Of a stretch of DNA of 39,582 bases, positions 21,864 to 27,990 are shown one piece after another. The stretch's first letter is position 1, and every line of letters begins with the position of its first letter. The notes below the pieces were generated by a model, which did not search any database, was not told the origin of the DNA, and worked only from the letters and a program-made list of their open reading frames with translations. A program made the position numbers and the translations under genes. The stretch comes from Solirubrobacteraceae bacterium. GTDB lineage: Bacteria > Actinomycetota > Thermoleophilia > Solirubrobacterales > Solirubrobacteraceae. The DNA lies in assembly GCA_017882445.1 (NCBI GenBank), contig JADGPK010000021.1:1-39582 (forward strand), given 5' to 3'.

Positions 21864-23864
21864 ATGCCCGAACCCCGCAAAGCGCTGATCACCGGTGTGA
21901 CCGGCCAGGACGGCTCCTATCTGGCCGAGCTGCTGCTCGAGAAGGGGTACGAGGTCCACGGCATGGTGCGCCGCGCCTCGACCGAGAAGTTCGACCGCAT
22001 CGAGCACATTCGCGACCGCATCACATTCCACCAGGGCGACCTGCTCGACCAGCGCTCGCTCGTCGACGCGCTGCGCGCCTCGCGTCCCAGCGAGATCTAC
22101 AACCTCGCCGCCATGTCCTTCGTCGCCGTGTCCTGGATCCAGCCGACGCTGACCGCCGAGTTCACCGGCGTGGGCGTCACGCGGATGCTCGAGGCGATGC
22201 GCGAAGTCTGCCCCGACGCCCGCTTCTACCAGGCCTCCTCCAGCGAGATGTTCGGCAAGGTGCTCGAGGTCCCCCAGACCGAGACCACGCCGTTCTACCC
22301 GCGCTCGCCCTACGGCGTCGCCAAGGCCTACGGCCACTTCATCACGGTCAACTACCGCGAGTCCTACGACCTGCACGCGACGTCGGGGATACTTTTCAAC
22401 CACGAGTCCATCTGTTCGAACACCCCGCTTCTCGTCAGGGATGACGGGATCATCTCGGTCAAGACGCCGGTGGATCTCGTCCCGCTCTTGAGGAAGGGCG
22501 GATCGGTCCAGAACTTCATTCCCAAGTCGTTCCTCGAGATCTGGGACGGAGCGGATTGGACGCCGATAAACGCGATCACGGCGACGCGCCGGCGCCGAAC
22601 CGATCCCGATCATCAGCTGATCTCGATCCAGGCCCGGGCGGGAGTCGTCGAGGTGACGGCACATCACAACATGCTCGACTCAGAGCGCGAGAAGGTTCCT
22701 GCACGCGACGTCGAGCCGGGCGATCAACTCGCCCTCGCGGAAGAGATGCCGCAAGCGGCCGGGTGGACCGCCGCAACGGCTGAGATGGCCGAGTTCCTGG
22801 GCCTGCTCGCCGCTGACGGTTACGTACACCGAGACGGCACAGGCATCCGCTTCACCAACAACGATCCGATTCTTCGTCTTCGCGTCGCGACCCTGTGGTT
22901 ACAGCTTTTCCTTGGCAGCTCCCGAGAATGGACCGGAACATCCGGTTGGGACGACGACGCGGTGGTTGAGCACATCAATCTCACCGGTAGCAGCGGGACA
23001 GCCAGATGGCTGCGGGAGCAGCTGTACACCGCGACCGACCTCAAGCAGGTTCCGGCTCTCGTTCTCAACGCGAGCGCCGAGATCCAGCAGGCATTCATCA
23101 AGGGCTACTACGCGGGCGATGGGCTCAAGGCCGGCAATGGCGCGTCGATTACGACCAACAGCCCGGTCCTCGCTCAGGGCCTCTGCTGGATGTACCAGGT
23201 GAACGGGCAGCCTGCCTCCGTGTACGTCGAGCAACGTGGCACGAAGACCTACTACCACCTCAATCTTGCCTCGGCGGTGAGAGTGGGCGCCAAGGGTGAG
23301 CACCTGCGCAAGAACCCCGCCGAAGTCAGACGTGTAGCGGCCGCCGTCGTGCCCGACGACGAATGGACATTCGATGTGGCGACAGAGAGCGGAGCCTTCT
23401 GTGCGGGCGTAGGGCGCGTCGTCATCTCCAACTCTCCCCGCCGCGGCCTGGAGTTCGTGACGCGCAAGATCACCTGGCACGCGGCGGCGATCAAGCATGG
23501 CCTGGCCAAGGAGGTCCGTCTGGGCAACCTCGACGCCGAACGCGACTGGGGCTATGCCAAGGACTACGTCGAGGCCATGTGGCTGATGCTCCAGCGTGAC
23601 GATCCCCAGGACTACGTCATCGCCACCGGCCAGGCCCACTCGGTGCGCGAATGCTGCCAGGTCGCCTTCGACGAGGCGGGCCTCGGCGACTTCGAGCCCT
23701 ACGTCACGATCGATCCCTCGTTCGTGCGGCCGGCCGAGGTCGACCACCTGATCGGCAGCCCGGCCAAGGCCGAGCGCGACCTCGGTTGGAAGCCCGAGAC
23801 CACGTTTGAGGAGCTGATCAGGCTGATGACCCAGGCCGACCTGGCGTTGCTCGCGCGCCGCTGA
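21864..23864 (+). CDS. gmd: GDP-mannose 4,6-dehydratase interrupted by an in-frame intein
   Basis: A 666-residue precursor. The exteins (1-181 and 524-666, 324 residues together) form a normal-length GDP-mannose 4,6-dehydratase, which converts GDP-mannose to GDP-4-keto-6-deoxymannose. The NADP motif is [15 protein letters not shown], the catalytic residues are in [10 protein letters not shown] and Y150-G-V-A-K154, and the conserved [17 protein letters not shown] follows the insert. The intein (182-523) splits the invariant LFNHESPRRG loop that contacts cofactor and nucleotide, so the unspliced protein should be inactive. The stop lies 5 bp before the aminotransferase start. With the aminotransferase the product could be GDP-perosamine; with a reductase, GDP-rhamnose. 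Both pathways are inference. Confidence 0.95.
22407..23432 (+). other. Intein with LAGLIDADG homing endonuclease domain in gmd
   Basis: A 342-residue insertion, precursor residues 182-523, that keeps the host frame. Block A is [14 protein letters not shown] with Ser182 as first nucleophile. Block B is VTAHHNML (T265, H268), followed by [21 protein letters not shown] blocks are LGLLAADGY (312-320, catalytic D318) and [10 protein letters not shown] (411-420, D419). Block F is [15 protein letters not shown], and block G is VVISN with terminal Asn523, then Ser524 as the +1 nucleophile. The usual penultimate His is Ser522. Ser at both junctions and the uninterrupted NHES motif of the paralogue at 27007-27990 fix the boundaries. 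By eye the codons are somewhat less GC-rich than in the exteins, which suggests separate ancestry. Confidence 0.93.
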
Positions 23865-27006: not shown

Positions 27007-27990
27007 TCAGGAGAGCGGCGGGCTCGCCCGCAGCGCTTGAAGGTCCGCCTGCACCATTCGCTCGACGAGCGCCTGGAAGTCCAGCCGCGGCCGCCAACCC
27101 AGCCGCTCGCGCGCCCTCGTGGGGTCGCCGACGCTCGGCGTGCTCTCCTGCACGCGAACCAGGGCGGGGTCGACGCGCAGATGGCGCTGCACGTCCAGGC
27201 CCACGCACTGAAAGGCCGTTCTCGCGAGCTCCGCCACGGTGTGCGCCACGCCGCTGGCCAGGACATAGTCATCGGGGCGATCCTGCTGGAGCATCAGCCA
27301 GGCGCCCTGCACGATGTCCCCGGCGAACGACCAGTCGCGGATCGCCTCCAGCGAGCCCAGCGTCAGCTCCTCCTGCAGGCCGAGCGAGATCGCGGCCGCG
27401 GCACGCGTGACCCTCCGCGTCACGAACCGCTCCGGTCGGCGCTCGGACTCGTGGTTGTAGACGATCCCCGAGCACGCAAACACCCCGTCGTTCCTCCGCA
27501 GGGCGCCCACCAGCTCGTGCGCGGCGAGCTTGGCGATCGCATACGGCGTCGCCGGGCGGCACGGCGTGTCCTCGCGCTGCGGGCTCTCGGGCGCCTCCCC
27601 GAACATCGCCCCGGACGCCGAGATGAACACCCGCGTCCCGCTGTCGGCCTCACGCACGGTCTCGAGGATCGCCGCACAGGAGCCCACGATCGATCGGATG
27701 GTCTCGCCCGGCCGCTGCCAGGACGCGGGCACGAACGAGGGTCCCGCGAGGTGGTAGATCTCCGTCGGACGCACCGCGACGATCGCGGCTTGCAGGGTCT
27801 CCGGTTCGAGCAGATCGCCCTGCACCAGCTCGATCTGTCCGCGCAGGTGCTCGCTGCAGCCGAGCGCCTCCGCGGACGCTTCCCTGACGAGGCCGGTCAC
27901 CGCGTAGCCCTTCTCCAGGAGCAGCTCCGCCAGGAACGAGCCGTCCTGGCCGGTGATGCCCGTTATCAGGGCGCTTGGGGCAAGGGACAC
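27007..27990 (-). CDS. GMD-like sugar-nucleotide SDR lacking the dehydratase glutamate
   Basis: A 327-residue paralogue of the GMD at 21864-23864, beginning [23 protein letters not shown]. The YxxxK motif is intact (PYAIAK), but the SSSEMFG of true dehydratases reads ASGAMFG, so the catalytic glutamate is alanine. That argues against 4,6-dehydration and fits a reductase or epimerase such as GDP-4-keto-6-deoxymannose reductase (RMD), which would turn the GMD product into GDP-rhamnose; inference. The NHES-ERRPERFVTR loop is uninterrupted, showing the empty form of the intein site. The gene lies 9 bp after the GT4 gene in the same leftward unit. Confidence 0.9.
   Translation of the reverse strand: MSLAPSALITGITGQDGSFLAELLLEKGYAVTGLVREASAEALGCSEHLRGQIELVQGDLLEPETLQAAIVAVRPTEIYHLAGPSFVPASWQRPGETIRSIVGSCAAILETVREADSGTRVFISASGAMFGEAPESPQREDTPCRPATPYAIAKLAAHELVGALRRNDGVFACSGIVYNHESERRPERFVTRRVTRAAAAISLGLQEELTLGSLEAIRDWSFAGDIVQGAWLMLQQDRPDDYVLASGVAHTVAELARTAFQCVGLDVQRHLRVDPALVRVQESTPSVGDPTRARERLGWRPRLDFQALVERMVQADLQALRASPPLS

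What the first reader, a model, noticed from the sequence alone, without database searches (positions are those of the whole stretch)
22407..23432. LAGLIDADG-bearing intein inside GDP-mannose 4,6-dehydratase
The frame of gmd is preserved across a 342-residue insert with intein blocks A, B, F and G and two LAGLIDADG motifs. It sits in the conserved LFNHE-SPRRG loop, the kind of invariant site inteins favour. GMD is not among the intein hosts I can recall (polymerases, helicases, RecA, gyrase, ribonucleotide reductase, a UDP-glucose dehydrogenase). If functional, GDP-deoxysugar production depends on protein splicing.
Basis: partly seen in the sequence, partly recalled or inferred. Interest (0 to 1): 0.9.

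Follow-up and report, generated by a model that had tools for sequence, protein, structure and literature searches.

The report
Mobile intein in sugar-nucleotide gene gmd
A bacterium related to the Solirubrobacterales carries, in its gene for making GDP-deoxysugars, a protein insert that should splice itself out and looks mobile (an intein); kin of this insert sit at the same spot in gmd genes of other bacterial phyla and of viruses, so it is real but not the first of its kind.

Summary
It is a LAGLIDADG homing intein: the model (pLDDT 90.5) matches solved VMA inteins, and Ser1, T84, H87, D323, N342 and Ser+1 are in place. It is no assembly artefact: 12 of 101 relatives, own included, carry it in gmd, one a single-contig genome, while 16 of 21 assessable same-genus gmd genes are empty. 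Kin occupy this site in gmd of seven bacterial phyla and of 13 viral contigs. Intein and extein trees conflict, and two AU tests, with groups named after seeing the trees, reject congruence: the intein moves apart from the gene. It is the only convincing gmd in this assembly. Novelty is limited: a gmd intein is in print for Thermosynechococcus (PMC9403480), and a pithovirus GMD tops the viral fold search. This copy has Ser1 and a penultimate Ser where most cellular kin have Cys and His; splicing itself is untested.

The parts
21864..23864 (+). gmd precursor (GDP-mannose 4,6-dehydratase with intein), 666 aa
21864..22406 (+). N-extein, 181 aa, ends ...GILFNHE
22407..23432 (+). intein, 342 aa, Ser1 ... 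Asn342
22407..22445 (+). block [14 protein letters not shown]; Ser1 nucleophile (Cys in 24 of 28 cellular rows with this end)
22656..22667 (+). block B TAHH; Thr84 (B:7) and His87 (B:10), kept in 41 of 41 rows
22794..22820 (+). first LAGLIDADG motif, FLGLLAADG, acidic Asp137
23094..23123 (+). second LAGLIDADG motif, [10 protein letters not shown], acidic Asp238
23364..23405 (+). block [15 protein letters not shown]; Asp323 (F:4)
23412..23435 (+). block G GRVVISN plus Ser+1; penultimate Ser341, C-terminal Asn342
23433..23864 (+). C-extein, 143 aa and stop, starts SPRRGLEF
27007..27990 (-). gmd paralogue without intein at the matching site (YNHESERRP), 47% identical; lacks the Glu of the SSSEMFG motif

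Best explanation
A class 1 homing intein of the LAGLIDADG type lies in gmd at the NHE|SPRRG site. The gene is translated as a 666-residue precursor; Ser1 attacks the preceding peptide bond (Glu181-Ser1), the N-extein passes to Ser+1, Asn342 cyclises, and a 324-residue GMD and a free 342-residue intein result. The free intein is a site-specific endonuclease that would cut intein-free gmd at the codons of NHE-SPRRG and be copied in by recombination. Shown here: the insert, its predicted fold, its motifs, empty and filled alleles, and tree conflict between intein and host gene. Inferred: splicing and cutting by this copy.
For: Model pLDDT 90.5, pTM 0.90; best PDB fold matches are inteins with endonuclease (7qsu E 2.6e-21, 7qss, 7qst, 2cw7, 1dq3); a family profile finds 7qsu by sequence (E 2.8e-18). 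Positions listed for class 1 inteins in PMC4031507 (passages) are filled: Ser1, T84, H87, D323, N342, Ser+1. In gmd and in frame in 12 of 101 relatives including own, one of them (G031) a single contig; empty in 16 of 21 assessable same-genus gmd genes, read letter by letter in 15 of those 16. dN/dS 0.13 against the sister copy (NG86, dS 1.2, near saturation). The intein clade L012+L014+L015 (100/99) is rejected for the exteins (AU p 0.00067), and window+L010+L012+L015 is rejected for the inteins (p 0.00064). Presence and absence need 13 and 12 changes on two extein trees. Both endonuclease acids are kept.
Against: No splicing or cleavage assay. Ser1 is unusual: 24 of 28 cellular rows with this end have Cys, and the penultimate His, present in 26 of 29 cellular rows, is Ser here. 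Pfam's splicing-domain model does not hit this copy. The AU groups were named after seeing the trees. The window comes from a 234-contig assembly, so a single-base error at codon 1 cannot be excluded.
Confidence: 0.93

Rival explanations
1. The intein of this particular genome has lost or slowed splicing (Cys1 to Ser1 plus penultimate His to Ser), so gmd here is inactive or nearly so and the element is at the start of decay.
For: Ser1 is found in no other member of the 16-row Solirubrobacterales/Thermoleophilia intein clade whose N-end is held (L019 is cut). Recalled: Cys1-to-Ser changes often slow Cys1 inteins. A frayed relative exists: the Thermomicrobiales copy L037 has an in-frame stop.
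Against: No stop or frame break in the window; dN/dS 0.13 to the sister copy; window end branch (0.14) is not longer than its sister's (0.18). Another gmd intein, L229 of G421, has Ser1, and so have the kin in an RMD-like gene (L230) and in Loki PolB (L045). The ISN ending is shared with L010 and L012, which have Cys1, and 5 of 11 viral copies with this end lack the penultimate His. PMC4031507 lists Ser1 as a class 1 nucleophile.
Confidence: 0.12
2. The intein is a conditional switch: it splices only under certain conditions and so gates synthesis of GDP-6-deoxy sugars and of a surface polysaccharide.
For: It sits in the only convincing gmd of the assembly, with a sugar aminotransferase gene starting 5 bases behind it. 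Conditional splicing is described for other inteins (PMC10663303: passages; abstracts in the listing).
Against: The intein is absent from 16 of 21 assessable same-genus gmd genes, and its spread fits a selfish element. Nothing here tests regulation.
Confidence: 0.08
3. The segment is an ordinary domain of GMD or an assembly artefact.
For: Only that the window is from a fragmented assembly of 234 contigs.
Against: Empty orthologues of up to 92% identity, the same junctions in single-contig genomes G031 and G384 and in Thiospirillum jenense DSM 216, and an intein fold.
Confidence: 0.01

Closest known systems
gmd intein of Thermosynechococcus (PMC9403480, 2022)
   Same: A type II intein (with homing endonuclease domain) in the gene for GDP-D-mannose dehydratase, inferred as gained by an ancestor of some strains (section 17 read; passages).
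   Different: Insertion site and sequence could not be compared here; a cyanobacterium. That section names the insertion in passing and says origin and function are unclear.
GDP-mannose 4,6-dehydratase of Pithovirus LCPAC304 (UniProt A0A481Z7I5)
   Same: Top viral fold match of the intein model, TM-score 0.85 by query, inside a 791-residue GMD.
   Different: 21% identity in the structural alignment; giant virus; its sequence and site were not read.
V-ATPase (VMA) inteins TliVMA and PhoVMA, PDB 7qss, 7qst, 7qsu
   Same: Intein with LAGLIDADG endonuclease; best solved-structure matches.
   Different: 17-20% identity in the structural alignment; other host protein.
DNA polymerase B inteins of large DNA viruses and of a Lokiarchaeon
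   Same: Same fold; the Lokiarchaeal PolB intein is 25% identical over residues 1-342.
   Different: Other host gene and site (Loki: LYGD before, TDS after).

Membership tests
Class 1 intein | In-frame insert absent from orthologues, precise junctions | tested here: met
Class 1 intein | Cys or Ser at position 1; Cys/Ser/Thr at +1; C-terminal Asn | tested here: met
   Ser1, Ser+1, Asn342; allowed residues from PMC4031507 (passages)
Class 1 intein | Block B Thr/His and block F Asp | tested here: met
   T84, H87 in 41 of 41 rows, D323 in 40 of 41, the gap being row L101, which is cut
Class 1 intein | Penultimate His (usual, not required) | tested here: not met
   Ser341; 26 of 29 cellular rows have His
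Class 1 intein | Hint fold | tested here: met
   Model matches whole intein structures, TM-score by query 0.66 to 7qsu; Pfam Intein_splicing model not hit for this copy, 5 of 21 members weakly
Class 1 intein | Protein splicing | not testable with these tools
   needs expression
LAGLIDADG homing endonuclease | Two LAGLIDADG motifs with acidic residues | tested here: met
   D137, D238; PF14528 at or over its cut-off of 22.5 twice, 27.9 and 22.5 bits
LAGLIDADG homing endonuclease | Site-specific cutting and homing | not testable with these tools
   Indirect only: intein and extein trees conflict
GDP-mannose 4,6-dehydratase (TIGR01472) | Equivalog score over cut-off once the insert is left out | tested here: met
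   428.4 against 415; precursor 409.7
Class 3 intein | Cys at F:4 with non-nucleophilic residue 1 | tested here: not met
   F:4 is Asp323 and residue 1 is Ser; definition from PMC4031507

The most novel reading that the evidence does not exclude
A single gmd-resident homing intein lineage circulates between viruses and bacteria of at least seven phyla, with gmd genes carried by phages and other viruses as its vehicle, because surface-sugar genes are exchanged so often; in each new host the maturation of GMD, and so the making of GDP-6-deoxy sugars, is put under the control of protein splicing. The window's lineage has moved to a Ser1 mechanism without the penultimate His.
Probability: 0.35. 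Interest if true: 0.62.

Novelty: new member of a known kind. Interest (0 to 1): 0.42.

Why it matters
Inteins are best known from genes of replication, repair and nucleotide metabolism (recalled; said also in the passages). A family set on one site of a surface-sugar gene, in seven bacterial phyla and in viral contigs, points to a second kind of crossroads for intein spread: nucleotide-sugar genes carried by viruses. It also shows how a gmd gene can be missed in annotation: this precursor falls under the curated cut-off of the gmd model. The natural Ser1/no-His copy beside Cys1/His relatives at the same site offers a clean test of how a splicing centre changes its nucleophile.

Tried and rejected
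Close kin in named phages and plasmids: none at E 1e-5 by tblastn with the window intein, nor with two viral inteins in phages. The first viral scan, with the window protein alone, found none; the scan with the alignment found two, and the N-junction DNA pattern found 13 (L102 is the contig of L059). Class 3 mechanism rejected (Asp at F:4). The idea that the neighbouring paralogue is a spare GMD was weakened by its missing Glu. A rare ATA codon six codons before the site is enriched in carriers (8 of 14 Ile codons there, against 4 of 183 elsewhere in the gene; 15 carriers used), but 6 of 27 intein-free alleles have it too (against 9 of 351 elsewhere), so co-conversion or past carriage is only a hint; the sequences are related and not independent. 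YN00 failed in every pair and NG86 gave no dS for L040-L041; the other NG86 values are used. Whether the Thermosynechococcus intein is at the same site could not be tested: no record was reachable. Papers whose passages held no gmd intein: PMC7765530, PMC6293099, PMC5371798, PMC11467894.

Full report
Observation. ORF 21864-23864 (+) encodes 666 residues. Residues 1-181 and 524-666 form one GDP-mannose 4,6-dehydratase; residues 182-523 (22407-23432) are an insert between LFNHE and SPRRG. Leaving the insert out lifts the TIGR01472 score from 409.7, under the curated 415, to 428.4 over residues 6-319 in one stretch. The nearest solved GMD by sequence is 1rpn (E 1.3e-126). The insert has a lower third-position G+C (78%) than its flanks (94%, 92%).

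What it is. The AlphaFold2 model, from 21 homologues, has pLDDT 90.5 and pTM 0.90. Its best Foldseek matches among solved structures are inteins with endonuclease: 7qsu (E 2.6e-21), 7qss, 7qst, PI-PkoII 2cw7, PI-PfuI 1dq3, then PI-SceI. A profile of the family finds the VMA inteins, PI-PkoII and a TFIIB entry by sequence. Pfam's LAGLIDADG_3 hits 21 of 21 members; Intein_splicing hits 5 of 21, weakly, and not the window copy. Across 41 aligned inteins (29 cellular, 12 viral), Thr84 and His87 (block B) are kept in 41; Asp323 (block F) and Asn342 in 40, the gap being L101, which is cut; the acids of the two LAGLIDADG motifs are Asp or Glu in 39 and in 39. PMC4031507 (passages) names these splicing positions for class 1 inteins and allows Cys or Ser at position 1.

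Same site in relatives, empty in others. Among 101 relatives 13 match the intein at E 0.001; one of them, G012, matches only through a GyrB intein, so 12 of 101, own included, have it. In the 11 others it lies in gmd, in frame and at the same place, with L019 seen only at its C-junction because the contig ends. G031 is a single contig. In the window's genus (24 genomes) I read the rows as: full-length gmd without intein in 16, with intein in 5, not assessable in 3 (G001, G007, G010). The empty site was read directly in 15 of the 16; G018 was not fetched. Six of those 15 differ from NHESPRRG at one residue (four SERRG, one THES, one GPRRG). In 399 genomes of the class 12 match, one of them (G279) through a GyrB intein, so 11. 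In 396 genomes of the phylum 5 match: own, G031, two further gmd inteins (G441, G421), and one in an RMD-like gene of G478, at AFNH|TGPRRG. Host names are my reading of the translations.

Other phyla and viruses. The one scan of named genomes gave 24 loci, about ten of them the named records of genomes already met under G handles. 23 of 24 are gmd at this site; L031 and L032 are identical in sequence, L029 and L044 are cut before the N-junction, and L037 has a stop inside the intein. They are labelled Actinomycetota, Planctomycetota, Acidobacteriota, Myxococcota, Thermomicrobiota, Chloroflexota, Pseudomonadota (including Thiospirillum jenense DSM 216, a named strain) and one unplaced bacterium; most are metagenome assemblies and single contigs may be misbinned. 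The 24th is a Lokiarchaeal DNA polymerase B intein at 25% identity. In viral contigs an exact DNA pattern for the N-junction GILFNHEC gave 13 contigs, and 13 of 13 hold, by my reading, gmd with a homologue of this intein (HMM E 1e-133 to 6e-12, for a set of 13); L100 and L101 run off before the C-junction. The pattern demands Cys1, so it says nothing on Ser1 in viruses. So among viral contigs with this exact motif the filled site is the minority. One 117-kb contig carries the gene among glycosyltransferase-like and lysozyme-like genes (my reading).

Mobility. In the intein tree (28 rows) L012, L014 and L015 form one clade (100/99), and the window pairs with L010 (100/100); many deeper forks are weak. 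In the extein tree L014 lies with intein-free genes of another clade (96/93), while L012, L015, L010 and the window lie with intein-free neighbours (99/97) (47 rows, after dropping 3 short carriers and 8 of 30 free loci that my pattern missed). With 50 rows (27 of 30 free loci; L037 and L059 also dropped) an AU test rejects the inteins' grouping for the exteins (p 0.00067), and on the 28 inteins it rejects the grouping window+L010+L012+L015 (p 0.00064); the groups were chosen after seeing the trees. Presence and absence need 13 and 12 changes on those two extein trees. In the larger intein tree (41 rows; L044, L059, L060 and L100 not used, L059 being represented by L102) viral and cellular rows need 4 changes, with long branches and no direction resolved. 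Synonymous distance from window to L012 is 0.51 in the extein but 1.77 in the intein. All this fits arrival of the intein apart from its gene.

The window's own copy. Its first residue is Ser; 24 of 28 cellular rows with this end have Cys, and the other Ser rows are L229 (gmd of G421), L230 and the Loki PolB intein. Its penultimate residue is Ser, as in L010 and L012; 26 of 29 cellular rows have His, while of 11 viral rows 6 have His, 2 Gly, 2 Ala and 1 Ser. There is no sign of decay: no stops, dN/dS 0.13 to the sister (dS 1.2), end branch no longer than the sister's. A read error at codon 1 remains possible.

Dependence on splicing. At E 1e-60 the genome (94.9% complete by the tool) shows two gmd-like genes: this one and a 47% paralogue at 27007-27990, intein-free at YNHESERRP. 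The paralogue scores 281.6 on the gmd model, under 415, though its nearest solved kin are GMDs, and its SASGAMFG lacks the Glu of SSSEMFG; that this Glu is catalytic is recalled. So, if the assembly holds every gmd gene, GDP-4-keto-6-deoxymannose would come from the spliced product. The next gene, 5 bases on, is a DegT-type sugar aminotransferase; perosamine synthetases are among its solved kin but are not the best match.

Prior art. The papers held were searched. PMC9403480 (section 17 read; passages) reports type II intein insertion in gmd, placed in the ancestor of the Taiwanese and Indian Thermosynechococcus strains. I saw no other paper on a gmd intein in those listings; two surveys by Novikova and colleagues are not held, and subscription journals are mostly missing. 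BFVD's top fold match is a pithovirus GMD of 791 residues. So the host gene is not new; a description of the family across phyla and viruses did not turn up in those searches.

Verdict. Ordinary in kind (class 1 LAGLIDADG intein, host gene already reported), well supported, and of moderate interest for the breadth of the family, the viral carriers and the natural Ser1 copy.

Noticed in passing
G000 C219 near 3781 (L091): The same genome has an intein in a GyrA-like gene (AAAMRY|C...HN|TEARL), host name my reading.
   Followed up: partly
G000 C133 near 15109 (L093): The same genome has an intein in a ThyX-like gene (...F|C...SGN|THELIRHRAG), so at least three inteins in one genome of 3.3 Mb.
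   Followed up: partly
L098 (viral contig IMGVR_UViG_3300005663_000033): A viral gmd seems to carry a second intein at another site, just before STSELFGE, besides the one at NHE|SERRG.
   Followed up: no
L230 (G478): A related intein with Ser1 sits in an RMD-like SDR gene one residue off the matching site (AFNH|TGPRRG), hinting at a jump between paralogous genes.
   Followed up: partly
L064, L065, L066, L069 (SERRG), L067 (THES), L072 (GPRRG): Six of 15 empty same-genus gmd alleles read here differ from NHESPRRG by one residue at the insertion site; four of them also have the rare ATA codon. Perhaps sites that escape the endonuclease, or scars of past carriage.
   Followed up: partly
L037: Thermomicrobiales gmd intein has an in-frame stop near its start: decaying copy or sequence error.
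   Followed up: no
L042, L034: Intein size variants: 402 aa with an extra segment of about 60 aa before the endonuclease part, and 316 aa with a piece of the endonuclease part missing.
   Followed up: no
window 22389-22391 and relatives: Rare ATA Ile codon six codons before the insertion site in 8 of 14 carriers with Ile there and 6 of 27 empty alleles, rare elsewhere in the gene; possible co-conversion trace.
   Followed up: partly
L057 (G279), L021 (G012), L022 (G023), L058 (G084): Inteins in GyrB-like genes of three relatives and one in a radical-SAM-like gene, met as weak matches (names my reading).
   Followed up: no
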